Shown here piece by piece: positions 1,677 to 59,590 of a stretch of 64,000 nucleotides of DNA. The notes below the pieces were generated by a model that did no database searches, was not told where the DNA came from, and saw only the letters and a list, made by a program, of their open reading frames with translations. How positions within the stretch are numbered: position 1 is the stretch's first letter; each line of letters starts with the position of its first letter. The position numbers and the translations under genes were made by a program. This stretch comes from Planctomycetaceae bacterium. GTDB taxonomy: Bacteria; Planctomycetota; Phycisphaerae; Phycisphaerales; SM1A02. The DNA is taken from the NCBI GenBank assembly GCA_947492385.1, contig CANLMX010000005.1:1-64000 (forward strand). Direction: 5' to 3'.

Positions 1677-1682
1677 TAGACT
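1677..1682 (+). promoter_or_regulatory. -10-like TAGACT, 7 nt before ATG 1690 (candidate leaderless promoter)
   Basis: TAGACT-gcgccgc-ATG. Confidence 0.55.
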
Positions 1683-1689
1683 GCGCCGC

Positions 1690-2376
1690 ATGCACTCGGG
1701 CTCCAAGGATCGGATCGGGCCGTCGTTCGTCGCAGCATCGCTTGCCGCGTGCGCCCTCGGCGCCGCGCTGTCGCTTGCCGGCTGTTCCGCCCCGCGCACG
1801 TGGCCGTCGATCACCGGCGAGCAGGGCATCTCGGCTGATGCGCCGCCGCTGCCGCAGGTGGTGATGGACGCCCTGAAGCACGCGCACAAGGAGATCGCAC
1901 CGGGCGCGCCGCTCGTCTACAACCTGCCGCAGGAGATCAACGTGTCGGCGTTCGCGACGTACGAGCGCGGACTGGCGCCCGGCAAGCCCATGTGCCCCGG
2001 GGATCGTGACGTGTGGACGGTGCGCCAGGCGCGCATCGACGGCAGCAAGGCGCAGGTCGACATCGAATACCCGACGCCGGAGGGCATCTACCAGACCGTC
2101 ACCGTGCACCTGGCCGGCGCGACCGCGGGCATCGGCTACAAGCCCGACTACCTGCAGTTCTGGAAGGTGCCCGTGAAGGCGCCGATGTGCCAGACGCCGG
2201 TCGCCGTGGTGGAGCGCGCGTGCGGCGAGGCCGCGGCGACGAAGCTGCGTGCCGAGCGCGAGGCGGCGGGTGCGGCGGCTGCGCAGGCCGCGAGCGCGGG
2301 TGCGGCCAGTGGCGCGGGTGCCACGGCACCGGCCCCACCGAAGGCCACCGCCGGCGCCGACGAGCCGGGCAAGTGA
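1690..2376 (+). CDS. Putative lipoprotein of unknown function
   Basis: N-terminal signal with lipobox LSLAGC. Confidence 0.6.
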   Translation: MHSGSKDRIGPSFVAASLAACALGAALSLAGCSAPRTWPSITGEQGISADAPPLPQVVMDALKHAHKEIAPGAPLVYNLPQEINVSAFATYERGLAPGKPMCPGDRDVWTVRQARIDGSKAQVDIEYPTPEGIYQTVTVHLAGATAGIGYKPDYLQFWKVPVKAPMCQTPVAVVERACGEAAATKLRAEREAAGAAAAQAASAGAASGAGATAPAPPKATAGADEPGK

Positions 2377-2392
2377 TCGCCGCGGCCCCGCG

Positions 2393-3298
2393 ATGAGCCG
2401 CACCGGCGCCAGGATCCGGCCGTCCGAACAGCTCGAGGAATCGCTGCGCGAAGCGCTGCTGGCGGAGATCGACGCAGCCCTGGCGGAGTGCGATCGCCTG
2501 GCCAGCTGGGAGCAGCCCCAGCGGCGCGACGCCGTGCACCAGCTGCGCCGTGCGCTGAAGCGGTTCCGGGCGGGTGCCAGCCTGTGCAAGGGCGCGGTGG
2601 ATGGAGTCGAGGTGAAGGCCGTGCAGGAGGACGTGCGTGCCACGGCCGAGCGGCTCTCGGCGACGCGCGACCGTGACGTGCTGGTCGAGACCATCGGCGG
2701 CGTCGTTCGCATCTTCCCCCCGACCTCGCGCCGGAGCGCACAGGCGATCGCCGTCGCGCTGCTGGCGCCCGACAAGGCGACGACGGCGTCCGCCGACTGG
2801 CACCAGGCCGCCGCGCTCATCCGCGCGCAGCTCGAGGCGATGCGCACGCGCATGCTGGCGGCCGACCTGCGCGCGGTGGCGCCCGACAGCGTGGCCGACG
2901 CCATCGCGAAGCGGTGGCGCCGGGCGCGGCGCGCGGCCGCGGTGCCATGGAACGCCGAGCACCTGGACGCCCTGCACGAGGTGCGCAAGGAGTGCCAGCG
3001 CCTGGCGCTCCAGCTGCACCTGGTGTCACGGCTCGGGCCGCGTGCGCGGCTTGAACGGCTGGCGCGGCGGCTTGGGCGCGTGGTCTCGACGATCGGCGAG
3101 GATCGCGACCTGGGGCTGCTTGAAGGATTGCTGCACGAACGGCGCGGCGAGTTCCCCGATCCGCGGCAGGTGGATGCCATGCTCGCGGAGATCAAGGACC
3201 GGCGCGCGGCGTGCCTGCGTGCGGCCCGCAAGCGTGCGGGGCGCGTGCTCGCGCGCAAGGCGCGCGTGGTGCGGGCGCTTGTGACTCGCGGGCGGTAA
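2393..3298 (+). CDS. CHAD domain-containing protein
   Basis: RRDAVHQLRRALKRFRAG and LHEVRKECQRLALQL: two conserved His/Lys/Arg-rich helices typical of CHAD. Confidence 0.75.
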   Translation: MSRTGARIRPSEQLEESLREALLAEIDAALAECDRLASWEQPQRRDAVHQLRRALKRFRAGASLCKGAVDGVEVKAVQEDVRATAERLSATRDRDVLVETIGGVVRIFPPTSRRSAQAIAVALLAPDKATTASADWHQAAALIRAQLEAMRTRMLAADLRAVAPDSVADAIAKRWRRARRAAAVPWNAEHLDALHEVRKECQRLALQLHLVSRLGPRARLERLARRLGRVVSTIGEDRDLGLLEGLLHERRGEFPDPRQVDAMLAEIKDRRAACLRAARKRAGRVLARKARVVRALVTRGR

Positions 3299-3351
3299 CG
3301 CGGCGCGGGGCGCGGCGCACGCGGGGACGCCGCGGGGCGTGGTCGCCCAAG

Positions 3352-3357
3352 TACCCT
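3352..3357 (+). promoter_or_regulatory. -10-like TACCCT, 9 nt before ATG of proS
   Basis: TACCCT-tgccgcccc-ATG. Confidence 0.5.
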
Positions 3358-3366
3358 TGCCGCCCC

Positions 3367-4902
3367 ATGAGCGGCAAGCAGCAGACGGCCATTACCCCCA
3401 CGCGCGACGAGAACTACGCCGAGTGGTACCAGCAGGTGGTGCGCGCGGGCGACCTGGCCGAGAACAGCCCGGTGCGCGGCTGCATGGTGATCAAGCCCTG
3501 GGGCTACGCCATCTGGGAGAACGTGCAGCGCGTCCTCGACGGCATGTTCAAGGCCACGGGGCACCGCAACGCGTACTTCCCGCTCTTCATCCCGCTCTCG
3601 TTCCTCGAGAAGGAGGCCGCGCACGTCGACGGCTTCGCGAAGGAATGCGCCGTGGTCACGCACCACCGGCTCAAGGCGGGCGCCGACGGGAAGCTGGTCC
3701 CGGACGGCGAGCTCGACGAGCCGCTCATCGTGCGGCCCACCAGCGAGACCATCATCGGCGCCACGTTCGCGAAGTGGGTGCAGAGCTACCGCGACCTTCC
3801 GCTCCTCATCAACCAGTGGGCGAACGTCGTGCGCTGGGAGATGCGCACGCGGCTCTTCCTGCGCACCGCGGAGTTCCTGTGGCAGGAAGGGCACACGGCC
3901 CACGCCACGCGCGAGGAGGCCGAGGACGAGACGATGAAGATGCTCCGCGTGTACGCGGAGTTCGCCGAGGAATGGATGGCGATGCCCGTGATCCAGGGCT
4001 GCAAGACCGAGAGCGAGCGCTTTCCCGGCGCGGTCGACACGTACTGCATCGAGGCCATGATGCAGGACCGCAAGGCCCTGCAGGCCGGCACCAGCCACTT
4101 CCTGGGGCAGAACTTCGCGAAGGCCAGCGAGATCCAGTTCTTGGACGCCGATGGGCAGCAGAAGTTCGCGTGGACGACCAGTTGGGGCGTCAGCACCCGG
4201 CTCATCGGCGCGATGATCATGACGCACTCGGATGACGACGGTCTTGCGGTACCGCCGCGGCTGGCGCCGACGCACGTGGTGATCCTGCCGGTGATGCACA
4301 AGCCCGAGACCGCGGCCGCGGTGCTGGAACACTGCCGCAAGCTGGCCGCGGACCTGCGGTCGCGCACCTTCGCCGGGCGCCCGATCGAGGTCGAGGTGGA
4401 CGCGCGCGACCTGCGCGGCGGCGACAAGATGTGGCAGTGGGTGAAGAAGGGCGTGCCCGTGCGCGTGGAAGTGGGCCCGCGCGACATCGAGCAGGGATCG
4501 GTGTTCGTCGGGCGCCGCGATCGCACCGCCAAGGACAAGCAGTCGATGGCGCGGGACGCGTTCGTCGACGGCGCGGCGTCGCTGCTGCAGGAGATCCAGG
4601 ACGGGATGTTCGCGCGTGCGAAGGCGTACCGCGAGGAACACACGAAGCGCATCGACTCGAAGGCCGAGTTCGAGGCCTTCTTCACGCCCACGCGCGCGGG
4701 CGACGAGAACGCGCCGAGCGAGATCCACGGCGGGTTCGCGCTCAGTCACTTCTGCGGCGACCCCGCGGTCGAGGCGGACGTGAAGAACCGCATGGGCGTC
4801 ACCATCCGCTGCATCCCGCTCGACGCGCCCGAGGAGCAGGGCACGTGCGTGATCACGGGGCGGCCCAGCGCACGCCGGGTGGTGTGGGGCAAGTCCTACT
4901 AA
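3367..4902 (+). CDS. proS: Prolyl-tRNA synthetase, archaeal/eukaryotic-like type
   Basis: Class II aaRS motifs: VRPTSETIIGATFAKWV, RWEMRTRLFLRTAEFLWQEGHTAHA, TSWGVSTRLIGAMIMTHSDDDGLAVPPRLAP. Confidence 0.93.
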   Translation: MSGKQQTAITPTRDENYAEWYQQVVRAGDLAENSPVRGCMVIKPWGYAIWENVQRVLDGMFKATGHRNAYFPLFIPLSFLEKEAAHVDGFAKECAVVTHHRLKAGADGKLVPDGELDEPLIVRPTSETIIGATFAKWVQSYRDLPLLINQWANVVRWEMRTRLFLRTAEFLWQEGHTAHATREEAEDETMKMLRVYAEFAEEWMAMPVIQGCKTESERFPGAVDTYCIEAMMQDRKALQAGTSHFLGQNFAKASEIQFLDADGQQKFAWTTSWGVSTRLIGAMIMTHSDDDGLAVPPRLAPTHVVILPVMHKPETAAAVLEHCRKLAADLRSRTFAGRPIEVEVDARDLRGGDKMWQWVKKGVPVRVEVGPRDIEQGSVFVGRRDRTAKDKQSMARDAFVDGAASLLQEIQDGMFARAKAYREEHTKRIDSKAEFEAFFTPTRAGDENAPSEIHGGFALSHFCGDPAVEADVKNRMGVTIRCIPLDAPEEQGTCVITGRPSARRVVWGKSY

Positions 4903-4996
4903 GGCCCATAACAAGCACCTCAGCGGCCGATTGGCGAGGTTCTCGGGCGCCATGAGCCAGTTTGGGTGCCATTTGCGCCCATCGTGGTGACCGTCG

Positions 4997-5025
4997 CCTT
5001 GCCGCGGAGCGTTGCCGCGGCAGGG
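4997..5025. terminator. Stem-loop downstream of proS / upstream of secreted protein
   Basis: ccttgccgcgg / ccgcggcaggg, 11-bp stem with one T-G, 7-nt loop; no U-tract. Confidence 0.3.
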
Positions 5026-5091
5026 TGAGGGTGTCCTCGGGAATTCTCCTGAGAAACGCCTCCCAAGGCGAACGTGAGAGAGGGAAAGGCC

Positions 5092-5757
5092 ATGCGCGTC
5101 ATCGCGTCTTCGTTCATCGCAGTTGCGGGAATCGCCGTCGTCGCGGCCGTGCCATGTGCGCACGCCGGTCTGGTGAACCCGCTGATCCCGACCTGGGCCG
5201 GACAGGCCAACACGCAGTCGGCGTCGTGGGACACGTTCACGCAGGCTTCGGGCGGCGCGAACCTTCCCGATGCGGGCGGCTCGCCGTTCTCGCTCATGAA
5301 CTTCGGCGCCGCCTCGGCCATCGCAGGCAGCGGCAACATCTACAGCTTCTCCGCGCCGCTCTACATCATGATCATGGGCGGCACGCTCGGTAACGGCCAG
5401 ACGCCGCTGCAGGTGGTCATGAACGTGGCGACGGTCGGCACGCCGATCGCGCCCGCAAGCGTGAAGCTCACCATGTGGGACGCCACGGGCGCCCAGTACG
5501 TGGTTGCCCCGAACGCGAGCGAGGTCCGTTCCGACGTGCCCGCGCCGCAGGGGGGGAGCATCCAGACCATCGCATTCACCTGGAACACGGCCGCGGCGCC
5601 GATCACGGCGAGCGGCTTCCGATTCGAGTTCCTGGCCTCGGGCCCGAGCATGTCGCTCGACGCCGTCCGGCTTGACCTCCAGTACGTGCCCGCGCCCGGC
5701 GCAATGGCACTGCTCGGCATGGCCGCGTTCATCGCGCGCCGGCGGCGCCGCGCATGA
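5092..5757 (+). CDS. Secreted protein with PEP-CTERM-like C-terminal sorting signal
   Basis: Signal peptide MRVIASSFIAVAGIAVVAAVPCAHA and C-term VPAPGAMALLGMAAFIARRRRRA; start chosen at 5092 after purine-rich agaggga. Confidence 0.75.
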   Translation: MRVIASSFIAVAGIAVVAAVPCAHAGLVNPLIPTWAGQANTQSASWDTFTQASGGANLPDAGGSPFSLMNFGAASAIAGSGNIYSFSAPLYIMIMGGTLGNGQTPLQVVMNVATVGTPIAPASVKLTMWDATGAQYVVAPNASEVRSDVPAPQGGSIQTIAFTWNTAAAPITASGFRFEFLASGPSMSLDAVRLDLQYVPAPGAMALLGMAAFIARRRRRA

Positions 5758-5821
5758 CCATGCCCACGAACTTCACCTGAGTTTCGGCTCTCTTTCCTCA
5801 GCCTGGCTCCCTGCCACGCCT

Positions 5822-5857
5822 CCGCCCGACTGCCTCCGTGCAGCGGGCGGTCTTTCA
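5822..5857 (+). terminator. Terminator-like hairpin
   Basis: ccgcccg...cgggcgg followed by tctttca. Confidence 0.5.
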
Positions 5858-5979
5858 TTGGCAGTGGGTGCGTACGACGGCCCGGGCTGCGCCAGGAATC
5901 CGTCTGCTTGCGGAGGGTGGCGATTCGTGGGAACCTCGGGACCGCTTCGCGACTCTCACGCCCCAGAGGAACCCATCCG

Positions 5980-7494: not shown

Positions 7495-8329
7495 ACTGCT
7501 GATCGAGGTCGCCAGCGGCGTCGCGGTCGGGCTCGGCATGGGGTTGGTCGGCGCGGGCGGCGCGATCTTCACCGTTCCCGTGTTCGGCACGTTGCTGGGT
7601 CATGGCACGAAGGACGCGATCGCCGAGGCATTGGCGGTGACGGGGTGCATCGCGGCCGGGTCGGGCGCGATCGCAGGGGCGCGCGGCTTGGTCGACTGGG
7701 GGCGGGTGGTGTCGTACGGCGCCGCCGGGATCGTGGGCGCGCAGGTGGCGGCACCGATTGCGGTGCGCATGGCCGCGTCGCTGCAGGTGGCGATGTTCGC
7801 GGTGGTCGCGGGCTACGCGGCGTGGCGGATGTGGGGATCGGCGGGTGGCGCGGAGATGGACGCGGGTGCGGCGGGTCATGCGGGCGGGCACGTCGCGCTC
7901 GACGCGGGTCATGGAAGCGCCGAGGGGCGTCGCGCGTGGTGGAAGCCGTACGCGATCGGCGGCGTGATCGGCATGCTCACCAGCCTGCTTGGCGTGGGCG
8001 GCGGGTTCCTGTTGATCCCGGCGCTGGCCGTGCATGAGGGGCTGCCGATGACGCGCGCCGTGGCCACGAGCCTGATGGTGATCGCGATCAATGCGTCAGC
8101 CGGAGTCGCGGGACTCTGGCTCAACGGTGGGCTTGACGCGGGCACGTTCCATGGACGCCCCGTGGCGATCGTGGCGGGATGCGGCGTGGTGGGCAGCATC
8201 GTGGGGGCGGCCATCCAGCGGCGCGTGCCGCAGGCAGCACTGCGTCGCGTGTTCGCCGTGCTGCTGCTGGCGGTGACCGTCGTGATGGTCGTGAAGGTGG
8301 CCCCCGGGGTCATGGTTCACGGGAAATGA
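7487..8329 (+). CDS. TauE/SafE family sulfite exporter-like permease
   Basis: GLGMGLVGAGGAIFTVPVF and GMLTSLLGVGGGFLLIPAL repeats; GTG start overlaps upstream stop by 8 nt. Confidence 0.8.
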   Translation: MDELLIEVASGVAVGLGMGLVGAGGAIFTVPVFGTLLGHGTKDAIAEALAVTGCIAAGSGAIAGARGLVDWGRVVSYGAAGIVGAQVAAPIAVRMAASLQVAMFAVVAGYAAWRMWGSAGGAEMDAGAAGHAGGHVALDAGHGSAEGRRAWWKPYAIGGVIGMLTSLLGVGGGFLLIPALAVHEGLPMTRAVATSLMVIAINASAGVAGLWLNGGLDAGTFHGRPVAIVAGCGVVGSIVGAAIQRRVPQAALRRVFAVLLLAVTVVMVVKVAPGVMVHGK

Positions 8330-8359
8330 CCTCCGGGGCCGCATCCGGGCGTCAAATGA

Positions 8360-8393: not shown

Positions 8394-8415
8394 CCTCGTG
8401 GGGGCTGGGATGGGG

Positions 8416-9048: not shown

Positions 9049-9054
9049 AGGTTA
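9049..9054 (-). promoter_or_regulatory. -10-like TAACCT, 6 nt before ATG 9042
   Basis: TAACCT-gtgaac-ATG on minus strand. Confidence 0.5.
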
Positions 9055-9121: not shown

Positions 9122-9127
9122 TAGCCT
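9122..9127 (+). promoter_or_regulatory. -10-like TAGCCT, 6 nt before ATG 9134
   Basis: TAGCCT-gtgccg-ATG. Confidence 0.55.
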
Positions 9128-11575: not shown

Positions 11576-11581
11576 ATGGTA
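11576..11581 (-). promoter_or_regulatory. -10-like TACCAT, 9 nt before metG ATG
   Basis: TACCAT-ccacccctc-ATG on minus strand. Confidence 0.5.
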
Positions 11582-12217: not shown

Positions 12218-12223
12218 TACGCT
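12218..12223 (+). promoter_or_regulatory. -10-like TACGCT, 6 nt before ATG 12230
   Basis: TACGCT-tggggc-ATG. Confidence 0.55.
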
Positions 12224-14008: not shown

Positions 14009-14929
14009 CTAGCGGATCGCCGGCTGCGCGCCCACTCGGCCCTGGAGCCCGAGCGTGCGGTAGATGCGCCGTGTCGCGTCGCTGCGGTTGAGCGTGTAGA
14101 AGTGGATCCCGGCGACGCCGCGATCCATCAGGTCGCGCGCCTGTTCGGTGGCCCAGTGGATGCCGACGTTTGCGACGTCCTCGGGACTGTCCTCGCACCG
14201 CTTGATCGACCGGAGCAGCGATGCGGGGAATCGCGTGCCTGCCGCGAGCTCGGCCATCCGCTTCAGGCCCGCGATGGACGTGATCGGCATGAGGCCCGCG
14301 ATCACGGGCACCGTGATGCCGGCGAGCGTGCACCGGTCGCGCCAGTCGAAGAAGGCGTCGTTGTCGAAGAAGAGCTGCGTGATGATGAAGTCGGCCCCGG
14401 CCGCGACCTTCGCGCGCAGGTGATCCATCTGCACGAGGGTGTTGGGGGTCTCGGGATGGCCTTCCGGGAAGCCCGCGACGCCGATGCCGAAGCCACGCAC
14501 GTGCGGATGGCGGCCGGCCTCGTTGAACGAACGCACGGCGCGCACCAGGTCCGCCGCGTGCCGGAAGTGGCCGGGCTCGCCGCCCGATGCGCCACGCGGC
14601 GCGTCACCGCGCAGCGCGAGGATGTTCGAGACTCCGCGCGCGGCGTACCCGGCAAGGATGCCGTCGATCTCCGCCTCGGTGTGTCCCACGCACGTGAGGT
14701 GCGGCACCGGGCGGAGCGACCCCGACGACTGCAGCTTCGCGACCAGGGCATCCGTGCGGTCTCGCGTGCTTCCGCCCGCGCCGTACGTCACCGACACGAA
14801 CGAAGGGTGCAGCGACTCGAACTCGTGGACCGATGCCGCGAACGCATCCCACGCCTCGTCGGTCTTCGGGGGGAAGAACTCGAAGCTCGCGGTCATGCCG
14901 TCGCGTGCGATGACGTCGGCGATGTGCAT
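14009..14929 (-). CDS. metF: 5,10-methylenetetrahydrofolate reductase
   Basis: SFEFFPPKTDEAWDAF, PSFVSVTYGAGGSTRDRT, LALRGDAPRG, GADFIITQLFFDNDAFFDW. Confidence 0.93.
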   Translation of the reverse strand: MHIADVIARDGMTASFEFFPPKTDEAWDAFAASVHEFESLHPSFVSVTYGAGGSTRDRTDALVAKLQSSGSLRPVPHLTCVGHTEAEIDGILAGYAARGVSNILALRGDAPRGASGGEPGHFRHAADLVRAVRSFNEAGRHPHVRGFGIGVAGFPEGHPETPNTLVQMDHLRAKVAAGADFIITQLFFDNDAFFDWRDRCTLAGITVPVIAGLMPITSIAGLKRMAELAAGTRFPASLLRSIKRCEDSPEDVANVGIHWATEQARDLMDRGVAGIHFYTLNRSDATRRIYRTLGLQGRVGAQPAIR

Positions 14930-14936
14930 GGGGACC

Positions 14937-14942
14937 AGTCTA
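14937..14942 (-). promoter_or_regulatory. -10-like TAGACT, 7 nt before metF ATG
   Basis: TAGACT-ggtcccc-ATG on minus strand. Confidence 0.6.
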
Positions 14943-14968
14943 GGTGCGGGCCGTGCGAGCCCCCGGCC

Positions 14969-14974
14969 TAGACT
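14969..14974 (+). promoter_or_regulatory. -10-like TAGACT, 7 nt before rex ATG
   Basis: TAGACT-ggcgcgc-ATG. Confidence 0.6.
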
Positions 14975-14981
14975 GGCGCGC

Positions 14982-15701
14982 ATGCGAACGCCTGCCCGCC
15001 TGCCGAGGCCCACGGTGGAACGGCTGAGCCTGTACCTGCGCGAGCTCGAACGGGCCGGCCCCGACGCCGCGTCCACGGTGAGCAGCCGCCAGCTCGGCCT
15101 CGCGGCTGGCGCGACCGACGCGCAGGTGCGCAAGGACCTGGGCTTCGTCGGCGTCGTGGGACGGTCGGGCGTCGGCTACGCGCGGGATCGGGCGGTGGAG
15201 GCGATCCGCCGTGCGATCGGCATGCACCGGCCCTGGCGCGCCGTGCTGGTGGGTGCCGGGAACATCGGTCGCGCGCTCGCGGCCTATGGGCGCTTTCGGG
15301 AAGAGGGGTTCGTCATCGTCGCGATCATCGATCGCGCGCCATCGATCCTGGGGCGCCAGGTGGCGGGCATCGAGGTGCGGCCGATGGATCAGCTCGCACG
15401 GGCGGTCCGGTCGGAGGGCGTCGACATCGGGATCATCGCGGTCCCCGGCGAGGAGGCGCAGGGCGTGGCCGACGCGCTGGTGGCGGCGGGTGTGCGGGGC
15501 GTGCTGAACTTCGCGCCGACGCGGCTCGACGTCGACGGGCGCGTCCCGGTCGTGGAGGTGGACTTCCGTGCCGCGCTCGAGCGGCTGGCCGCGGAGGTGT
15601 CGCAGCGCGACGGGGATCGTCGGGCGGCGGCGACGCGACCCACGGGGTCCGCAAGTCCCGCGGTTCCCGCGCGGCGGCCGCCCCGCCGTCGACCGGGCTA
15701 G
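14982..15701 (+). CDS. rex: Redox-sensing transcriptional repressor Rex
   Basis: LPRPTVERLSLYLRELE, SSRQLGLAAGATDAQVRKDLGFVG, VLVGAGNIGRALAAYGRF, GVLNFAP. Confidence 0.92.
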   Translation: MRTPARLPRPTVERLSLYLRELERAGPDAASTVSSRQLGLAAGATDAQVRKDLGFVGVVGRSGVGYARDRAVEAIRRAIGMHRPWRAVLVGAGNIGRALAAYGRFREEGFVIVAIIDRAPSILGRQVAGIEVRPMDQLARAVRSEGVDIGIIAVPGEEAQGVADALVAAGVRGVLNFAPTRLDVDGRVPVVEVDFRAALERLAAEVSQRDGDRRAAATRPTGSASPAVPARRPPRRRPG

Positions 15702-15704
15702 CAT
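15699..15704 (+). promoter_or_regulatory. -10-like TAGCAT, 7 nt before ATG 15712
   Basis: TAGCAT-ggtttcc-ATG. Confidence 0.5.
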
Positions 15705-22602: not shown

Positions 22603-22608
22603 AGGATA
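22603..22608 (-). promoter_or_regulatory. -10-like TATCCT, 7 nt before argS ATG
   Basis: TATCCT-gccccga-ATG on minus strand. Confidence 0.55.
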
Positions 22609-22670: not shown

Positions 22671-22676
22671 TACCAT
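22671..22676 (+). promoter_or_regulatory. -10-like TACCAT, 7 nt before ATG 22684
   Basis: TACCAT-ccgtcgc-ATG. Confidence 0.55.
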
Positions 22677-24429: not shown

Positions 24430-24435
24430 ATCGTA
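24430..24435 (-). promoter_or_regulatory. -10-like TACGAT, 8 nt before M42 peptidase ATG
   Basis: TACGAT-tccgcccc-ATG on minus strand. Confidence 0.5.
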
Positions 24436-24470: not shown

Positions 24471-24476
24471 TACCCT
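24471..24476 (+). promoter_or_regulatory. -10-like TACCCT, 9 nt before ribBA-like ATG
   Basis: TACCCT-gtgcggccc-ATG. Confidence 0.5.
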
Positions 24477-25702: not shown

Positions 25703-25708
25703 TATCGT
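25703..25708 (+). promoter_or_regulatory. -10-like TATCGT, 6 nt before ATG 25715
   Basis: TATCGT-tggggc-ATG. Confidence 0.5.
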
Positions 25709-29248: not shown

Positions 29249-29254
29249 TAGATT
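29249..29254 (+). promoter_or_regulatory. -10-like TAGATT, 8 nt before ATG 29263
   Basis: TAGATT-tccgttcg-ATG. Confidence 0.5.
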
Positions 29255-32686: not shown

Positions 32687-32692
32687 TAGAAT
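32687..32692 (+). promoter_or_regulatory. -10-like TAGAAT, 8 nt before the TPP riboswitch
   Basis: TAGAAT-cggaaata-TCGCTCGGGG. Confidence 0.6.
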
Positions 32693-32700
32693 CGGAAATA

Positions 32701-32785
32701 TCGCTCGGGGCGCGTCGTGCATTTCGCACGCCGCTGAGATGCACCCGTGGAACCTGACCCGGTTCGTACCGGCGTAGGGAAGCGA
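32701..32785 (+). promoter_or_regulatory. TPP riboswitch (THI element) upstream of thiC
   Basis: tcgctCGGGGcgc...gCTGAGAtgcACCCgtgGAACCTGAcccGGttcgtACCgGCGTAGGGAagcga; P1 tcgct/agcga. Confidence 0.95.
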
Positions 32786-32795
32786 ACACCATCCC

Positions 32796-34667
<1,872 letters not shown>

Positions 34668-38079: not shown

Positions 38080-41000
38080 GTGCCGAGGGTACATCGGCTC
38101 CGGCCGATTCCGGGCCGCTCCCGGGCTCCGTCGCGCCCCACATCCGGGCGCGCACCGTCACCAGGAGCGCATAGAACGTGGGCACGATCACCAGCGAGAG
38201 CAGGGTGGACGCCGCGAGTCCGTAGACCACGCACACGCCGATCGACCGACGCGACTCGGCCCCGGCGCCCGAGGCGAGCACGAGCGGCACCACGCCGAGA
38301 ATGAACGAGAACGCCGTCATCAGGATCGGCCGAAGCCGCAGGCGGGCCGCGTCGCGGGCGGCCTGGACGGGCGTGGCGCCCCGCTCCGAGGCCTCCTTGG
38401 CGAACTCGACGATCAGGATGGCGTTCTTCGCCGCCAGGCCGATGAGCATGACCAGCCCGATCTGCGCGTAGACGTTCACCGGGATCCCGTGCAGCGTGAG
38501 CCCCAGGATGCCGCCGAGCGCCGCAAACGGCACCGAGATCACCACCAGCACCGGGAGCAACCAGCTCTCGTACTGCGCGGCGAGGAAGAGGAACACCGCG
38601 ACGATCGCAAGGGTGAACACGATCGGCGCCGCGTTCCCCGACTTGCGCTCCTGGTAGACGATTCCGGTCCAGTCGTGCACGATGCCCTGCGGGAGCACGC
38701 GCGCGCACACCTCGTCGACGAAGGCCTGCGTCTCTCCGGAGCTGACGCCCGGTGCGCCGATGCCGTTCAGCGCAATCGTGTCGGTGACGTTGTAGTGGGT
38801 CAGGTTGTCCGGCCCGGTGGTGGTCCGCACCGAGGCGAACGCGCTGAAGGGCACCATCTCACCGACGCGGTTGCGGGCGTAGAGCTGCTCGAGGTCCGCG
38901 ACGCCCATGCGATGCGGCGCGTCGGCTTGCACGTACACCTGGTAGACCTGGTTGAACCGGTTGAACTGGTTCACGAACGCGCTGCCGAAGTTCAGCTGCA
39001 GCACGGCAAACGCGTCCGCGACGGTGAGCTCGAGCTGCTGCAGCTTGACCCGGTCGATCTCGAGCCACAGCTGGGGCACGTCCTTCTGGAACGGCGTGAA
39101 CAGGCCGGCAATGCGGTCGGGGCGCTCCCGTGCGGCCGCCATCACGTCCTGCGCGGCCTTCCAGAGTGCTTCCGTCCCGAGGCCGGCGCGGTCCACGAGC
39201 TGCACCTGGAATCCGCCCACCGTACCGAGGCCGGGGATCGACGGGGGATTCACGGGGAACACCATCGCCCCGGGGATCGGCCACAGGAGCGCCTGGAGCC
39301 GCTGCACGAGCGCGGTGGTGGTGCTTGCGGCCCCCGGCCGGTCGTCCCACGGCTTGAGCACGGGGATGAGCACGCCGCTGTTGGTCTGGGGCGCGCCCGC
39401 CAGGAAGTTCTGGCCGTCGATCTGGATGACCGTCTCGACCTCGGGCTGCGCCGCGACGATCCGCCGGGCCTGCTCGCCCACCTCGACGGTCCGCTGGAGC
39501 GTCGATCCCGGCGGAAGCTGGTACGCGACGAAGAAGTACCCGTTGTCCTCGTCCGGCACGAACGCCGTCGGCGCCCCCGTCACCATCCAGAGCGTCGCCG
39601 CGATGGCGGCGGTGAAGACCGCGAGCGCGACCGTCCAGCGGCGCACGAGCCAGCCGACCGTGGCCTCGTAGGCGCGTTCGGTGCGGGCGAACGCGCGGTT
39701 GAACGCACCGAAGGGACCGCGCTCCACCTGCTTGCGCGGACGCAGGAAGATCGCGGCGAGCGCAGGGCTCAGCGTCAGCGAGTTGATGCCCGACAGCACC
39801 ACCGACACCGCGATCGTCATCGCGAACTGGTTGTAGAGCTGCCCCGTGACGCCGGGCATCAGCGCCGCGGGCACGAACACCGCGGCCAGCGAGAGCGTGG
39901 TGGCCACGATCGGGCCGGCGACCTCGCGCATCGCGGCCGCCGTGGCCTTGACGGGGTCGGTCTCGCCGTGCTCGAACTTGCGCTCGACGTTCTCGACCAC
40001 GACGATCGCGTCGTCGACGACGATGCCGATTGCGAGCACCAGCCCGAGCAGCGTCAGCGTGTTGATCGAGAACCCGAGCGCGAGCATCACGCCGAACGTG
40101 CCGATGATCGACACCGGGATCGCCACCATCGGGATCAGCGTGGTCCGGAAGCTCTGCAGGAACACGAAGATGATCACCAGCACCAGGACCGCGGCCTCCC
40201 AGAAGGTCTGGACGACCTCGGCGATCGACGCGCTCACGAAGCGCGTGGTGTCGTAGTTGATGACGTACTCGACGTCCTGCGGGAAGTCCTTCGAGAGATC
40301 CTCCATCGCGGCGCCGATGGCCTTGGCGATCTCGAACGCGTTGGAGCCGGGCAGCTGGAACACGCCGACGAGCGCGGCGTCCTGCCCGTCTTGGCGGCCG
40401 TTGGACGCGTAGCTTGCCGCGCCCAGCTCGACGCGCGCCACGTCGCGCAGGAACACCGTCCCTTCGGGACCCGAGCGCACCACGATCTCCTCGAACTCGC
40501 GCACCTGCTCCAGCCGGCCCTTGGTGAGGACCTGCATCGCAAACGCAGGATCCCCGACCGTCGGGGCTGCGCCGGCCTTGCCCCCCACCGCCTGCCGGTT
40601 CTGCTCGGCCACGGCGCGCTGCACTTCGGTGGGGTCGATCCCCAGCGCGGCCAGCTTGGGCGTGTCGAGCCAGATGCGCATCGAGTACTGGCGGAGGCCG
40701 AAGTTCTGCACCTGCGCGACGCCCGGGATGCGCTGCAGTGTCTGGACGATGTTGATGTCGGCGTAGTTGGAAAGGAAGTCCGCGTCGTACGTGCCGTTGG
40801 GCGAACGCAGGCCGACCACCTGCACGAAGTCGGTCGACTGCTTCCGCACCGCGATTCCCTGCAGCTGGACCTCGGGCGGCAGCTGCGGGATGGCGGTCTG
40901 CGCGTAGTTCTGGACGTCGACCGCGCCGATCGACAGGTCGTATCCCACGTCGAAGGTGACCGTGATGGTGACGTTTCCGCCGTCCACGGAGTTGCTCGAC

Positions 41001-43929: not shown

Positions 43930-43935
43930 AGTGTA
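43930..43935 (-). promoter_or_regulatory. -10-like TACACT, 6 nt before OMF ATG
   Basis: TACACT-ccgcgg-ATG on minus strand. Confidence 0.55.
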
Positions 43936-44851: not shown

Positions 44852-45463
44852 TCAATCCGCCTCGGCGACGCCGAGCCACGCGAGCGGCTCGGAGGGGCTG
44901 CGCCACGGCGCGGGCGCGGGGATCCGCACCACGCCGAGCGTCGACCGCACGTCGATGCCCCATGGGTCCACGCCCACCACCTTCGGATTCACCAGCCGAT
45001 GCCCACCCGCCGCCTCCGCGGCGCGCGTGACCGCCTCGAGTCCCGAGGCATTCAGCGCCTTGCAGGCCGCGGGCTCGCGCGCCGCGAACGGGTTCTCGCG
45101 CGTGAGCGCGCTCCCGTCGATGAAGTACCCGTGCCACCGCGCCGCATCGACCGACATGCGTGCCCAGCGCACGTCCGGCGGCTCGCCGTGGTAGATGCAC
45201 CATCGGTCGCAGAGCGCGCCGTGCGGCCCGGACTCCTCGATCTGCTCGAGCGTCACCTGCACCTGCATGCCGTCGTCGGAGTCGTCCGGGAGCTCGAGCA
45301 CCACGTCGACCGCGCGCAGCATCGCGACCATCACGCTCGCGACGAGCGATCCGTCCGGCCCGGGGGCGACGCGGATCTCGATGCGCTCGCCGTCGAAGCG
45401 GATCTTCCCCGCAAGGTGCGCCCGGAGGAACGCATAGGCATCGTCCGCGGTGGTGTCGCTCAT
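44852..45463 (-). CDS. Conserved hypothetical protein
   Basis: ORF with candidate promoter; start at MSDTTADD from promoter spacing. Confidence 0.6.
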   Translation of the reverse strand: MSDTTADDAYAFLRAHLAGKIRFDGERIEIRVAPGPDGSLVASVMVAMLRAVDVVLELPDDSDDGMQVQVTLEQIEESGPHGALCDRWCIYHGEPPDVRWARMSVDAARWHGYFIDGSALTRENPFAAREPAACKALNASGLEAVTRAAEAAGGHRLVNPKVVGVDPWGIDVRSTLGVVRIPAPAPWRSPSEPLAWLGVAEAD

Positions 45464-45471
45464 CGGGCGCA

Positions 45472-45477
45472 ATCGTA
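45472..45477 (-). promoter_or_regulatory. -10-like TACGAT, 8 nt before ATG 45463
   Basis: TACGAT-tgcgcccg-ATG on minus strand. Confidence 0.5.
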
Positions 45478-45485
45478 ACGGCCCC

Positions 45486-45491
45486 TACGAT
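45486..45491 (+). promoter_or_regulatory. -10-like TACGAT, 6 nt before aroDE ATG
   Basis: TACGAT-gcgggc-ATG. Confidence 0.55.
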
Positions 45492-45497
45492 GCGGGC

Positions 45498-47132
45498 ATG
45501 ACGCACCTGTGCGTGTCCATTCCGGTCGATGCCGCCGACGCCGTCGGCGCCGCGCTGGCGGCCGCGGCCCGCGGAGCCGAGCGGGGTGCGTCGATGGTCG
45601 AGTGGCGCGTCGACGCGCTGGTGGACGCGCTCGGCGGCGCGCAGGCGCTTCCGCACGTGCGTGCGCTGGTGCGGGGCGCGCCCGTGCCAAGCATCGTCAC
45701 CGTGCGCAGCGCGCGCGAGGGCGGAGACTGGCACGGGGCCGACGACGAGCGCGTCAGCTTCCTCGAGGCCCTCTGCGCCGCGTCCGTGCCGGGCGAGGCC
45801 CCGGCATTCATCGACTTCGAGCTCGCGGACTTCGGGCGCAGCGCCAACCTCCGCCAGAAGGTGGAGCTGTGCGTGGTGCATCCGGGCCAGGTGCGCGACG
45901 TCGGCACGCGCCTCGTCCTGAGCGCCCATGGTCCGGAGGGCCGCCCCGCCGACCTCGTCCGCTCGGTGGCCGCGATGGCCGACGCCCCGTCGTGCACGGT
46001 GGCGAAGGTCGCGTGGACCGCACGCAGCGTTCGCGACTGCGTCGAGGCGTTCGAGCTCCTGCTTGCGCGCCCCAAGCCGATGGTGGCGCTGTGCATGGGC
46101 GAGGCCGGGGTGATGACCCGGGTGCTCGCGCCGAAGTTCGGTGCGTTCCTGACGTTCGCGCGCGCCGGAGGTCCGGGTGATGCGGACGCCGCCGCCGCGG
46201 TGGCGGTGGGCACGGCGCCGGGCCAGCCGACTGTTGCGGAACTGGTAGAGCGCTACGGGTTCGGGTGCATCGGGCCGCGCACGCAGGTCTTCGGCGTGGT
46301 GGGATGGCCGGTCGCGCACTCGCGCAGCCCCGAGGTCCACAACGCATGGTTCCGTGAGCGCTCGCAGGATGCGGTCTACGTGCCGATTCCCGTCGCGCCC
46401 GGGTGGGAGTCCTTCAAGGCGAGCCTGTCCGAGCTCCTGGCGTTCGCCCCGCTCGACTTCCGCGGCGCCAGCGTGACGCTCCCGCACAAGGAGCACCTCG
46501 TGCGATTCGTGCGCGAGTCGGGCGGGACCGTCGACGCGATCGCTGCACGGATCGGCGCGGCGAACACGCTCTGCGTGGCCGAGGGCGGCGCGCTCCGATG
46601 CACGAACACCGACGCGCCCGCGGCGGTCGACGCGCTGGTCGCGGGCATGGGGATCGACCGCGCCGCGCTTCGCGGCCGGCGCGTGGCGGTCATCGGTGCG
46701 GGCGGTGTCGCGCGCGCCGTGGCGGCGGGGCTTGCCGACGAGGGCGCGACGGTCGTCGTGTTCGCGCGCAGGGCGGACCGCGCCCGCGCGATGTGCGACG
46801 ACCTCATGCGCGGCACGGACGCCGGCGCCGCGTGCGGCGCGTTCGAGGGCAGGGTGGTCGCGGGCCGCGAGGGCGAGCTCGGCTGCGGCTGCTTCCATGC
46901 ATTCGTGAACTGCACGCCCGTCGGCATGGAGGGCGGCCCGGATCCCGACGGCAACCCGCTCGAGGACGTGGCGCTCGACGGCGCGGTGACCGTGATGGAC
47001 ACCGTGTACTCGCCGAGGGAGACGCCCTTGCTGCGCGAGTCGCGCGCTCGCGGTGCGCGATGCGTCGACGGGCTGGCGATGTTCATGGACCAGGCGCGGC
47101 GCCAGTCCGAGCTGTGGGCCGGGCTATCCTGA
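45498..47132 (+). CDS. Bifunctional 3-dehydroquinate dehydratase / shikimate dehydrogenase
   Basis: Type I DHQase-like N-terminus (GASMVEWRVDAL, VAWTARSVRD, MGEAGVMTRVLAPKFGAFLTFA) and AroE (GVVGWPVAHSRSPEVHNAWF, GASVTLPHKE, CTPVGMEGG). Confidence 0.9.
   Translation: MTHLCVSIPVDAADAVGAALAAAARGAERGASMVEWRVDALVDALGGAQALPHVRALVRGAPVPSIVTVRSAREGGDWHGADDERVSFLEALCAASVPGEAPAFIDFELADFGRSANLRQKVELCVVHPGQVRDVGTRLVLSAHGPEGRPADLVRSVAAMADAPSCTVAKVAWTARSVRDCVEAFELLLARPKPMVALCMGEAGVMTRVLAPKFGAFLTFARAGGPGDADAAAAVAVGTAPGQPTVAELVERYGFGCIGPRTQVFGVVGWPVAHSRSPEVHNAWFRERSQDAVYVPIPVAPGWESFKASLSELLAFAPLDFRGASVTLPHKEHLVRFVRESGGTVDAIAARIGAANTLCVAEGGALRCTNTDAPAAVDALVAGMGIDRAALRGRRVAVIGAGGVARAVAAGLADEGATVVVFARRADRARAMCDDLMRGTDAGAACGAFEGRVVAGREGELGCGCFHAFVNCTPVGMEGGPDPDGNPLEDVALDGAVTVMDTVYSPRETPLLRESRARGARCVDGLAMFMDQARRQSELWAGLS
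47125..47130 (+). promoter_or_regulatory. -10-like TATCCT, 6 nt before aroC ATG
   Basis: TATCCT-gaccgg-ATG, overlapping the 3' end of the aroDE CDS. Confidence 0.5.
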
Positions 47133-49890: not shown

Positions 49891-49896
49891 TATCTT
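49891..49896 (+). promoter_or_regulatory. -10-like TATCTT, 7 nt before ATG 49904
   Basis: TATCTT-ggagccc-ATG. Confidence 0.5.
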
Positions 49897-53601: not shown

Positions 53602-53617
53602 AATCCCCGTGGGGATT
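53602..53617 (-). terminator. Hairpin downstream of GH57-like gene
   Basis: aatcccc-gt-ggggatt, nested inside ccgtga/tcacgg. Confidence 0.3.
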
Positions 53618-53683
53618 GCGAGAAATCACGGTTCCGGGTGGCGTCGCTCCGGCGTGCCCGGATGCAGGCGCGTTATTGGGACA

Positions 53684-56437: not shown

Positions 56438-56444
56438 GGCCCCC

Positions 56445-56450
56445 AAGGTA
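56445..56450 (-). promoter_or_regulatory. -10-like TACCTT, 7 nt before GH57-like ATG
   Basis: TACCTT-gggggcc-ATG on minus strand. Confidence 0.5.
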
Positions 56451-56499
56451 TGGCGGCGCCGCGGCCGGAGGGAAGCGAAAACAGACGTCGATTCCGCGA

Positions 56500-57969
56500 T
56501 TATCCGCCGCCCGGGCCCTTGCCGCCGGGCTTCGTCATCGCGGTCGGATCCAGCAGGCGGTCCAGGGACTTGGGCTCCACCAACCCGTTGCGGAGCACGT
56601 ATTCGCGGATGGTCTCGCCGCTGGCATACGCCTCCTTGGCCGCCTTCGCGGCGTGGTCGTAACCGATCACCGGCGCCAGGCTCGTGACCATCATCAAGCT
56701 GCGCTCGACGGTCTGCGTGGCCGCAGGGTGCAACTCGAGCCCATCGATGCACTTCGTGCGGAACATGTCGCACGCGTTCGCGAGGAGCTCCACCGAGTCG
56801 ACGAGCGCCTCGGCGATCACGGGCATCGCGACGTTGAGTTCGAGCAGGCTCCCGATGCCGCCGAGCCCGGCGGTCGCGATCGTCGCATCGTTGCCGATGA
56901 CGCGGCAGGCCACCATCATCACGCTCTCGCAGATGACGGGGTTCACCTTGCCGGGCATGATGCTGCTCCCGGGCTGCGTGGCCGGGACCACCAGCTCGCC
57001 GAGCCCGCAGCGCGGCCCGCTCCCGAGCCAGCGCACGTCGTTCGCGACCTTCGTGAGGCTGACCGCCACCGTGCGCAGCAGCCCGCTCGCCTCGACGACG
57101 CAGTCGCGTGTCGCCTGCGCCTCGAAGTGGTTCGGGGCCTCGCGGAAGGCGATCTTCAGCTCCTTCGACAGGATGCCGCACACGGTGCTCCCGAGCTTCG
57201 GGTGCGCATTGATGCCGGTCCCGACGGCGGTACCGCCGATCGGCATGTTCGACGCGAGCACGTCGCGCGCGCGAGCGGCGCGCCGCGCGCCCTCCGCGAC
57301 CGCGGCCGCGTAGCCGCCGAACTCCTGCCCGACGCGGATGGGTGTTGCGTCCATCAGGTGCGTGCGGCCGATCTTCACGTGACGGTCCCAGGCGCGGGCC
57401 TTTGCCGCAAGCGACTTCGCGAGCGCGTCGAGCGCCGGCACCAGGCGGTCCTGGATCGCGACGGCCCCGGCCACCTGCATGGCGGTCGGGAACGTGTCGT
57501 TGGAGCTCTGCCCGCAGTTCACGTCGTCGTTCGGGTGCAACGGGATCTTCGAGCCGATGGGCTTGCCGTTCGAGATGCTCGCGACGTTCGCGATCACCTC
57601 GTTGACGTTCATGTTCGTGCTGGTTCCCGAACCGGTCTGGAAGACGTCGATCGGGAAGTGGCGCATCACCTCGGCACGGCGGTCGGCGAAGTCCTCGAGC
57701 AGGCGCTCGCACGCGTCGACGACCGCGGCGGCCTTGGGGCGCGGCAGGGTGCCGAGCTTCGCGTTCGCCAGCGCACAGGCGCGCTTGAGTTCGAGGTACG
57801 CGGCGATCACCTGCGGCGGCACCGGCCTGCCGCTCACCGGGAAGTTGAGGACGGCGCGCTGCGTGGTGGCGCCGTAGAGCACGTCGGCCGGCACGGTCAT
57901 GGTGCCCATGCTGTCGCTCTCGGTGCGGGTGCGGGCGTGCTGCTTCTTCGGGCTCGTTCGCTTGGCCAT
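56500..57969 (-). CDS. fumC: Fumarate hydratase class II
   Basis: FQTGSGTSTNMNVNEVIAN, NDDVNCGQSSNDTFPTAMQ, GRTHLMDATPIRVGQEF, GSSIMPGKVNPV. Confidence 0.95.
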   Translation of the reverse strand: MAKRTSPKKQHARTRTESDSMGTMTVPADVLYGATTQRAVLNFPVSGRPVPPQVIAAYLELKRACALANAKLGTLPRPKAAAVVDACERLLEDFADRRAEVMRHFPIDVFQTGSGTSTNMNVNEVIANVASISNGKPIGSKIPLHPNDDVNCGQSSNDTFPTAMQVAGAVAIQDRLVPALDALAKSLAAKARAWDRHVKIGRTHLMDATPIRVGQEFGGYAAAVAEGARRAARARDVLASNMPIGGTAVGTGINAHPKLGSTVCGILSKELKIAFREAPNHFEAQATRDCVVEASGLLRTVAVSLTKVANDVRWLGSGPRCGLGELVVPATQPGSSIMPGKVNPVICESVMMVACRVIGNDATIATAGLGGIGSLLELNVAMPVIAEALVDSVELLANACDMFRTKCIDGLELHPAATQTVERSLMMVTSLAPVIGYDHAAKAAKEAYASGETIREYVLRNGLVEPKSLDRLLDPTAMTKPGGKGPGGG

Positions 57970-58001
57970 GGGTCGTTCCTCGGGGCGGAGGATGGTAGCG
58001 G

Positions 58002-59552
58002 TCAGGCCGGCGCGCGGCCGCCGTCAGCGATCGCATCGCATCGCGAGCGCATCTCGCGCAGCGTCACGTCGACCGCCGAGAGGAACTCGGCCATGGCATC
58101 GGCGCCCGCCCGCAGTTCGCGCAACTCCGCACCGGCCGTCTCCGCGGCCTCGGCGGCCGCGTCGCCCTGTGCCGCGATCGCGTCGAGCGCCGGCATCACC
58201 GACGCCATCCGCTGGATCCCCTCGGCCATGTTGCCCTGGAGCCGTGCCGAGCGCGCGCTCGCCTCCTCGGCGGCGCGGGCGAAGTCCTCGGTCGCGCCGC
58301 CGCCTGCCGCGAGCGCGGCATGCAGCGCCTGCACGTTGCGCTCGATCTCCATGCTGTTGGCGGCCGCCTGTTGCGCCAGCCGGCGGATCTCGCCCGCCAC
58401 CACGGCGAACCCGCGCCCGGCCTCGCCCGCCTGAGCGGCCTCGATCTCGGCATTCAGGCTGAGCACGGCCGATCGATTGGCGATCTGCACCATCGCGTCG
58501 AGCGCGGCGTCGACTGTCTCGGCGCGCCGGCGCATCTCGTCAAGGTGTCTCACGAGCTCGCGCCCGCGCACGATCACGGCCTGCACGCCCGCGTCGATCT
58601 GCGACACCTCGCCGAGCGCTCCCGTGCCGCAATCGACCGCGGCGCGGGCGTCCGATGCCGCGTTGCGTGCTGCATCCGAGGCGCGGCGCGCGGCCCCCAG
58701 TGCGTCGAGCGAGGCACCGATGCCGCGACCGGCGCGATCGGCGAGCTCGGCGCCGGCGGCCATGCGCGCCGGGAGCCGGCTCTCGACGCGACCGGCGGAC
58801 TGGGCGATCGACGCGGACGCCCCGTGCAGCGCGGCGGCGGAAGCGCGTTCGCGCGCCGCGATGTCGGCTTCGTCCCGCAGGCGGCGCGCACGCTCCGCGC
58901 GGGTCCGTGACGCGGCGGACCATGCGACGACGGCCGCGCCCGCGAGGCACGCGAGCCCCACGGGACCGGCGACGTCGGTCGCGGCCTTTGAGGCCTCGGT
59001 GTCGATGCTCGCGGCGTCGAGGTCGATGCCCACCACCAGGCGCACGCGGCCCGACGCATCGGCGAGCGGCGCGAAGCCGCTGTAGAAGGATCCGTAGGAA
59101 TCGACGTACGCGAACGACAGCGGTTGCGACCAGTCGATGGCCGAAACCTCGCGTTCGCTGAACTTCATGGGCTCGCCGATCCCGGACTTGTCCGGGCCCG
59201 GCTCCTCGGCGTCCACCACGTAGGCCATGCCGGAGCGGCTGCCCGTGTCCGGTGCGAGCGTGAACACGAAGCGCACCGGCGCACCGGCCGCGCGCCATGC
59301 GTCGCGCAGCTCGCGCATCCGCGCCTCGATGCGCGCGTAGTCGTCGCCGTTCTGGTCGCGCGCGGCCAGCGCGCGGTCGTTCGCGTCGGGGTCGACCTCC
59401 TGCGTGGCCGTGCGCGCGTAGGCGATGGCCTCGCGCCCGAGGTTCGCCCGCAGCCGCGCGGCCACGGTGGCGTGCGCCGACCACCACGATGCGGCGGTGA
59501 CGCATGCGCCGGCTCCGAGCGCGATGAGGGTCGGTCCGACGGTGGGGTGCAC
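58002..59552 (-). CDS. Methyl-accepting chemotaxis-like protein with periplasmic sensor
   Basis: IANRSAVLSLNAEIEAAQAGEAGRGFAVVAGEIRRLAQQ signature; GTG start supported by promoter spacing. Confidence 0.85.
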   Translation of the reverse strand: MHPTVGPTLIALGAGACVTAASWWSAHATVAARLRANLGREAIAYARTATQEVDPDANDRALAARDQNGDDYARIEARMRELRDAWRAAGAPVRFVFTLAPDTGSRSGMAYVVDAEEPGPDKSGIGEPMKFSEREVSAIDWSQPLSFAYVDSYGSFYSGFAPLADASGRVRLVVGIDLDAASIDTEASKAATDVAGPVGLACLAGAAVVAWSAASRTRAERARRLRDEADIAARERASAAALHGASASIAQSAGRVESRLPARMAAGAELADRAGRGIGASLDALGAARRASDAARNAASDARAAVDCGTGALGEVSQIDAGVQAVIVRGRELVRHLDEMRRRAETVDAALDAMVQIANRSAVLSLNAEIEAAQAGEAGRGFAVVAGEIRRLAQQAAANSMEIERNVQALHAALAAGGGATEDFARAAEEASARSARLQGNMAEGIQRMASVMPALDAIAAQGDAAAEAAETAGAELRELRAGADAMAEFLSAVDVTLREMRSRCDAIADGGRAPA

Positions 59553-59558
59553 GCGCGC

Positions 59559-59564
59559 ATCGTA
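59559..59564 (-). promoter_or_regulatory. -10-like TACGAT, 6 nt before GTG 59552
   Basis: TACGAT-gcgcgc-GTG on minus strand. Confidence 0.5.
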
Positions 59565-59578
59565 GGGCGCGCGACTCC

Positions 59579-59584
59579 TACACT
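59579..59584 (+). promoter_or_regulatory. -10-like TACACT, 6 nt before ATG 59591
   Basis: TACACT-gcggcg-ATG. Confidence 0.5.
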
Positions 59585-59590
59585 GCGGCG

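What the first reader, a model, noticed from the sequence alone, without database searches (positions are those of the whole stretch)
1677..59590. Widespread leaderless-type promoters: TANNNT hexamer 6-9 nt before the start codon at 24 genes
Reading every intergenic region shows the same layout at 24 starts on both strands: 1690, 3367, 9042(-), 9134, 11566(-), 12230, 14929(-), 14982, 15712, 22595(-), 22684, 24421(-), 24486, 25715, 29263, 38079(-), 43923(-), 45463(-), 45498, 47137, 49904, 56437(-), 59552(-, GTG) and 59591. A TA[G/C/T]NNT hexamer ends 6-9 nt before ATG/GTG, so a TSS about 7 nt downstream would be at the start codon. No consistent -35 box or SD was seen. Operon-internal genes (for example the threonine dehydratase-like gene with gggaggg) and mscL (ggagg) keep an SD-like leader. 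At thiC the same hexamer lies 8 nt before the first base of the riboswitch, which independently calibrates the spacing. Leaderless transcription is well established in Actinobacteria, Deinococcus-Thermus and archaea; I do not know of it being characterised as a dominant mode in this lineage.
Basis: partly seen in the sequence, partly recalled or inferred. Interest (0 to 1): 0.72.

Follow-up and report, generated by a model that had tools for sequence, protein, structure and literature searches.

The report
Leaderless genes in a freshwater planctomycete
In this uncultured planctomycete (order Phycisphaerales) about two in five genes that begin a transcript have their promoter so close to the start codon that the messenger RNA should begin at the first codon with no leader, a known bacterial mode that earlier surveys did not report for this group.

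Summary
All 24 hexamers are at the stated places, and the window has 24 TANNNT-(6-9)-ATG sites against 5.1 in simulated sequence (max 11 in 200). A gene caller blind to the motif finds the same peak across 464 kb of the genome. In an unbiased scan of 640 patterns, TANNNT ending 6 or 7 nt before the start ranks first and second. The motif marks transcript heads (42% of divergent genes, 7% control) and is nearly absent from overlapping operon genes (5%). Shine-Dalgarno shows the opposite pattern. 150 of 177 orthologues in other Phycisphaerales keep the hexamer 5-11 nt before their own start (control 12%). The hexamer also precedes 27/27 TPP riboswitches (mode 8 nt before P1) and 29/29 RNase P RNAs of the order, so it is the -10 promoter box and the start codon is at or within about 3 nt of the transcription start. 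The lineage is Planctomycetota, Phycisphaerales. The level, roughly 23% of genes, resembles the Deinococcus control here and published Actinobacteria values. Use is patchy: near zero in some genomes of the same family and order. The mechanism is known; the new parts are the lineage and the turnover within it. No transcription start has been mapped.

The parts
1677..1682 (+). -10 box TAGACT, 7 nt before ATG 1690 (lipoprotein-like, no Pfam)
   Evidence: (2/2 orthologues keep it)
3352..3357 (+). -10 box TACCCT, 9 nt before ATG 3367 (prolyl-tRNA synthetase)
9049..9054 (-). -10 box TAACCT, 6 nt before ATG 9042 (rhodanese-domain protein)
   Evidence: start differs from caller
9122..9127 (+). -10 box TAGCCT, 6 nt before ATG 9134 (S1/CvfB-like RNA-binding protein)
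11576..11581 (-). -10 box TACCAT, 9 nt before ATG 11566 (methionyl-tRNA synthetase)
   Evidence: (orthologues at 9-11 nt)
12218..12223 (+). -10 box TACGCT, 6 nt before ATG 12230
   Evidence: 6/6
14937..14942 (-). -10 box TAGACT, 7 nt before ATG 14929 (methylenetetrahydrofolate reductase)
   Evidence: (9/9)
14969..14974 (+). -10 box TAGACT, 7 nt before ATG 14982 (Rex-like redox repressor)
   Evidence: (11/11)
15699..15704 (+). -10-like TAGCAT, 7 nt before ATG 15712 (weakly supported start)
   Evidence: only; no orthologue
22603..22608 (-). -10 box TATCCT, 7 nt before ATG 22595 (arginyl-tRNA synthetase)
   Evidence: (11/11)
22671..22676 (+). -10 box TACCAT, 7 nt before ATG 22684 (ECF-type sigma factor)
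   Evidence: (3/3)
24430..24435 (-). -10 box TACGAT, 8 nt before ATG 24421 (M42 peptidase)
   Evidence: (9/9)
24471..24476 (+). -10 box TACCCT, 9 nt before ATG 24486 (RibBA)
   Evidence: (13/16)
25703..25708 (+). -10-like TATCGT, 6 nt before ATG 25715 (weakly supported start)
   Evidence: only
29249..29254 (+). -10-like TAGATT, 8 nt before ATG 29263 (dockerin-domain protein; weakly supported start)
38086..38091 (-). -10 box TACCCT, 6 nt before ATG 38079 (Xaa-Pro aminopeptidase)
   Evidence: (17/31); one search shows SD-led orthologues in three loci
43930..43935 (-). -10 box TACACT, 6 nt before ATG 43923 (outer-membrane efflux protein)
45472..45477 (-). -10 box TACGAT, 8 nt before ATG 45463
   Evidence: 28/29
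45486..45491 (+). -10 box TACGAT, 6 nt before ATG 45498 (AroD/AroE fusion)
   Evidence: (10/15)
47125..47130 (+). -10 box TATCCT, 6 nt before ATG 47137 (chorismate synthase)
   Evidence: (19/19)
49891..49896 (+). -10-like TATCTT, 7 nt before ATG 49904 (weakly supported start)
   Evidence: only
56445..56450 (-). -10-like TACCTT, 7 nt before ATG 56437 (GH57-like; weakly supported start)
59559..59564 (-). -10 box TACGAT, 6 nt before GTG 59552 (methyl-accepting chemotaxis protein)
59579..59584 (+). -10 box TACACT, 6 nt before ATG 59591 (short ORF)
32687..32692 (+). -10 box TAGAAT, 8 nt before the P1 helix of the thiC TPP riboswitch (spacing calibrator)
32696..32797 (+). TPP riboswitch upstream of thiC (32796-34667)
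59832..59837 (+). TATCCT, putative -10 of mscL, 26 nt before ATG: a leadered counter-example
   Evidence: sequence; promoter role inferred
59850..59854 (+). GGAGG Shine-Dalgarno of mscL (ATG 59864)

Best explanation
TANNNT is the -10 box of the housekeeping (sigma-70-type) promoter. In this genus it commonly sits 6-9 nt before the start codon of the first gene of a transcript, so RNA polymerase starts on or within about 3 nt of the A (or G) of the start codon. The resulting mRNA is leaderless and is translated without a Shine-Dalgarno contact. Genes inside operons, and a minority of first genes such as mscL, keep a leader with an SD. Shown: motif, position, context, conservation and coincidence with non-coding promoters. 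Inferred: the transcript start itself, and translation by the leaderless route.
For: Unbiased scan of 640 patterns at 22 positions in 447 starts called without the motif: TA...T ending 6 nt (40 against 1.8) and 7 nt (35 against 1.8) before the start are the two top hits. With start uncertainty allowed for, 42% of own and 47% of same-genus divergent genes carry it (controls 7-8%), against 5% and 4% of overlapping operon genes. SD-like sequence is 28% at overlapping genes and 8% at divergent genes, which equals background. The same hexamer precedes 27/27 TPP riboswitches, 15 of them exactly 8 nt before P1, and 29/29 RNase P RNAs of the order; these are RNAs without a start codon, so the hexamer is a promoter element. 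Those promoters also show TTGACA-like boxes at the classical 17-bp spacing, 10/56 against about 1-2 at most other spacings. 150/177 distinct orthologous starts keep the hexamer at 5-11 nt, controls 12%, and it moves with the start codon when the N-terminus changes length. The D. radiodurans MP1 control gives the same peak (23% of heads, 6.8x; own genome 23%, 8.2x), while E. coli gives 1.0x.
Against: No transcript ends are available. The -1 base (C 63% in motif genes, 56% in others) does not separate the classes, so an initiator signature is not shown. No -35 enrichment is seen in the 115 leaderless promoters. Spacings of 8-9 nt, and 11 nt for MetRS orthologues, would also allow leaders of a few nt. 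In the class co-directional with gap >20 nt, the E. coli control also gave a small positive residue (5/15 against 2.2), so small samples are noisy.
Confidence: 0.88

Rival explanations
1. TANNNT at -15 to -7 is a translation signal, an A/T-rich or unstructured non-SD ribosome landing site (as in Bacteroidota, or an S1 site), inside a real 5' UTR.
For: Planctomycetes have few SD genes and a published analysis could not separate 'leaderless and/or RPS1' signals (PMC5397173).
Against: Overlapping operon genes, which need translation signals just as much, lack it (5% and 4%). It precedes 56/56 untranslated RNA genes at promoter spacing. The intact anti-SD tail CCTCCTTTCT is present in the two same-order 16S genes found.
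Confidence: 0.04
2. The hexamer is a real -10 box, but transcription starts a few nt inside or before the start codon, so the true starts are short-leadered (1-10 nt), or the real start codon lies downstream with a short UTR.
For: Start codons are uncertain for about 10 of 24 genes; spacings of 8-11 nt occur.
Against: A peak at 6-7 nt in independently called starts, and orthologues that keep the spacing to their own first in-frame codon.
Confidence: 0.15
3. Chance or composition artefact of a GC-rich genome together with choice of starts by eye.
Against: Motif-blind calling, shuffles, shifted-position controls and orthologue controls all reject it.
Confidence: 0.01

Closest known systems
'TA-led' leaderless genes of Actinobacteria and Deinococcus-Thermus (Zheng et al. 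2011, PMC3160421)
   Same: Same TANNNT consensus about 12 bp before the start, in high-GC genomes with uninformative middle bases; about 20-40% of genes; SD retained elsewhere.
   Different: Different phylum. Planctomycetes are not among the groups in which that survey of 953 genomes found leaderless genes. Here use varies from about 40% to about 0 of heads within one family.
Leaderless mRNAs of Mycobacterium (experimentally mapped; PMC4633059 listed)
   Same: Start codon placed where a -10-only promoter would start transcription; ATG and GTG starts.
   Different: Here inferred from sequence only.
GeneMarkS-2 leaderless class (21.6% of representative bacterial genomes; cited in PMC9581028)
   Same: Genome with leaderless first genes plus SD-led internal genes.
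   Different: The species assignments of that study were not readable here, so some planctomycetes may already be counted there.
Non-SD initiation in Planctomycetes (PMC5397173)
   Same: Reports nucleotide bias upstream of non-SD genes in the one planctomycete analysed, attributed to leaderless mRNA and/or ribosomal protein S1.
   Different: One species, no positional promoter evidence, and the two causes left unseparated; here they are separated for Phycisphaerales.

Membership tests
Leaderless (TA-led) bacterial genes | TANNNT -10 box at a fixed 6-9 nt before the start codon, above background | tested here: met
Leaderless (TA-led) bacterial genes | Box is a promoter element, not a translation element | tested here: met
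   56/56 TPP and RNase P promoters of the order carry it; absent at overlapping operon genes
Leaderless (TA-led) bacterial genes | Confined to first genes of transcripts; SD at internal genes | tested here: met
Leaderless (TA-led) bacterial genes | Conserved between orthologues | tested here: met
   150/177 against 12% control
Leaderless (TA-led) bacterial genes | Mapped transcript start at the start codon | not testable with these tools
   no RNA data
Leaderless (TA-led) bacterial genes | Pyrimidine -1 / purine +1 initiator specific to motif genes | tested here: inconclusive
   C at -1 in 63% against 56%
Sigma-70-type promoter | -35 TTGACA-like box at about 17 bp | tested here: inconclusive
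   present in some non-coding promoters (10/56 at 17 bp), not in leaderless coding promoters
Lineage without SD translation (Bacteroidota-like) | SD absent at all genes | tested here: not met
   SD in 27-28% of internal genes against 6% background

The most novel reading that the evidence does not exclude
Leaderless start is the default for transcript-head genes in this freshwater Phycisphaerales genus, reached independently of Actinobacteria and Deinococcus. Within single planctomycete families genes switch between leaderless and SD-led states by gain or loss of a 15-20 nt leader behind an unchanged -10 box, as seen for the Xaa-Pro aminopeptidase gene (leaderless here; -10 box 21-25 nt upstream plus AAGGAG in three relatives).
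Probability: 0.45. Interest if true: 0.55.

Novelty: new member of a known kind. Interest (0 to 1): 0.42.

Why it matters
It adds a lineage outside the classical leaderless groups, with essential genes (prolyl-, methionyl- and arginyl-tRNA synthetases, chorismate synthase, RibBA) apparently made from leaderless mRNAs. It implies that automated start calls in these metagenome genomes, which look for SD sites, will often be wrong. Because close relatives differ from about 40% to about 0, the order is a natural system for how leaderless and SD-led initiation replace each other.

Tried and rejected
The -1 base as initiator test: no contrast between motif and other genes. A -35 box in leaderless promoters: not enriched. 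An RNA polymerase beta search in the own genome and a 16S search found nothing, as can be expected of a 69%-complete MAG, so the anti-SD was read in relatives. A Streptomyces plasmid control was not held. The first version of the gene caller failed on low-GC genomes and was fixed; one script failed on a missing file key. An apparent CAT peak at 5-6 nt is the shadow of CATG, not a second signal. Composition artefact and reader bias were rejected as explanations.

Full report
WHAT WAS CLAIMED.

CHECK OF THE OBSERVATION. All 24 sites are present as described. Counting every ATG on both strands, the window has 24 with TANNNT 6-9 nt upstream, against a mean of 5.1 (maximum 11) in 200 block-wise dinucleotide simulations. 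Shifted positions in the real sequence give an expectation of 2.9. In 400 kb of the same genome outside the window the ATG profile by spacing is 27, 28, 10 and 13 at 6, 7, 8 and 9 nt, with about 5 elsewhere; GTG shows a smaller peak and TTG, CTG and ACG none. The signal is therefore genome-wide, with the window somewhat richer than average.

START CODONS. To avoid circularity I wrote a gene caller that uses only codon usage. Five more (9042-, 14982+, 24486+, 38079-, 45498+) are supported by orthologues that keep the motif at the aligned or local start. Five (15712, 25715, 29263, 49904, 56437-) are supported by the motif only and should be held loosely.

UNBIASED MOTIF TEST. Over 447 motif-blind starts (own genome plus same genus; divergent genes or gaps over 20 nt), 640 three-base patterns were scored at 22 positions. 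The two top results are TA...T ending 6 nt (40 seen, 1.8 expected) and 7 nt (35 seen, 1.8 expected) before the start.

CONTEXT. Allowing for start uncertainty (any in-frame ATG/GTG within 20 codons), 42% of own divergent genes have the box (control 7%), 26% of co-directional genes with gaps over 20 nt (3%), 20% with gaps of 0-20 nt (3%) and 5% of overlapping genes (0%). In the same genus the values are 47, 20, 33 and 4%. After background correction this sums to roughly 23% of all genes. SD-like sequence behaves the other way: 28% at overlapping genes, 8% at divergent genes, background about 6-7%. A translation signal would be expected at operon-internal genes; a promoter would not.

NON-CODING CALIBRATION. 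The thiC TPP riboswitch has TAGAAT at 32687-32692, 8 nt before its P1 helix. Among 27 TPP riboswitches of the order whose upstream DNA I could read, all have TANNNT just upstream, 15 at exactly 8 nt from P1 and 25 within 5-10 nt. All 29 readable RNase P RNA genes of the order have TANNNT ending between 2 nt inside and 11 nt before the modelled 5' end. Some sequences in these sets are close relatives, so the counts are not fully independent. These 56 promoters also show TTGACA-like hexamers at the classical 17-bp spacing (10 of 56). The hexamer is thus the ordinary -10 box of the order, and transcription starts roughly 6-8 nt after it, which at the coding genes is the start codon.

ORTHOLOGUES. 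Of 177 distinct orthologous starts (40-97% protein identity) in other Phycisphaerales, 150 (85%) have TANNNT 5-11 nt before a local in-frame start; shifted controls average 12%. Flanking DNA is largely unrelated, and the box moves with the start codon when the N-terminus varies. The Xaa-Pro aminopeptidase gene (38079-) shows the alternative state: in loci L051, L064 and L065 a TANNNT lies 21-25 nt upstream with an AAGGAG SD in between. In the window mscL has the same layout, with TATCCT 26 nt and GGAGG 9 nt before ATG.

CONTROLS AND SPREAD. With identical code, 100 kb of D. radiodurans plasmid MP1 gives 23% of heads at 6.8x background, E. coli gives 1.0x, the own genome 23% at 8.2x and its genus 24% at 9.9x. 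Elsewhere the picture is patchy: strong in G035 (same family) and G056 (same order), moderate in two more distant families of the phylum (G109, G066), near zero in G022 (same family), G051 (same order) and several others. Each of these genomes was sampled by only 48-80 kb.

LINEAGE. ThiC places the genome in Planctomycetota, Phycisphaerales, with freshwater MAGs as nearest named relatives. Its own 16S is missing from the MAG; the two same-order 16S genes found end in the standard CCTCCTTTCT, so the anti-SD is intact in the order.

GENE CONTENT. Genes with a leaderless layout include prolyl-, methionyl- and arginyl-tRNA synthetases, MTHFR, a Rex-like repressor, RibBA, AroDE and chorismate synthase, i.e. 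housekeeping genes rather than mobile DNA.

MECHANISM. Most likely RNA polymerase starts at the first base of the start codon and ribosomes load on the 5'-terminal AUG/GUG as on other bacterial leaderless mRNAs (established knowledge). In very compact divergent regions such as 45463/45498 the two -10 boxes are 8 bp apart, so the -35 region of each gene falls at or beyond the start of its neighbour. That may explain why no -35 is conserved (inference from the coordinates).

NOVELTY. TANNNT about 12 bp upstream as a sign of leaderless genes is established (PMC3160421). That survey lists the groups in which it detected leaderless genes, and Planctomycetes are not among them. A later study attributes the non-SD bias of one planctomycete to leaderless mRNA and/or S1 (PMC5397173). 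GeneMarkS-2 assigns 21.6% of bacterial species to a leaderless class (PMC9581028), whose species list I could not read. A full-text search for Phycisphaerae and leaderless finds no dedicated study. This is a new lineage for a known mode, with unusually patchy use among close relatives.

Noticed in passing
window 45463-45498, 59552-59591, 14929-14982: Very compact divergent promoters (intergenic 34-52 nt) with two back-to-back -10 boxes 8-26 bp apart; the 14929/14982 and 45463/45498 arrangements are kept in same-genus genomes although the DNA between diverges.
   Followed up: partly
G022, G051 (near zero) against G035, G056 (31-41% of divergent genes): Leaderless layout differs from about 40% to about 0 among genomes of one family and order, while the TANNNT -10 box is universal at the non-coding RNA promoters read in the order.
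   Followed up: partly
56 TPP and RNase P promoters (L102-L130, L276-L305): A TTGACA-like box at 17 bp is enriched in non-coding promoters (10/56) but not in 115 leaderless coding promoters; perhaps -35 is relaxed where it overlaps a neighbouring gene.
   Followed up: partly
all start-proximal regions, -3 to -1: Strong excess of C just before start codons (C at -2 in 62% and -1 in 60% of transcript heads), also present at operon-internal genes, so not a transcription signature; unexplained.
   Followed up: no
L051, L064, L065 (orthologues of 38079-): The same gene is SD-led with its -10 box 21-25 nt before the start codon in these relatives, a candidate leaderless/leadered switch.
   Followed up: partly
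record titles of L021 and others: Several Phycisphaerales-like MAGs carry odd organism labels in their public titles (Singulisphaera, Kuenenia, Leptolyngbya, Myxococcales).
   Followed up: no
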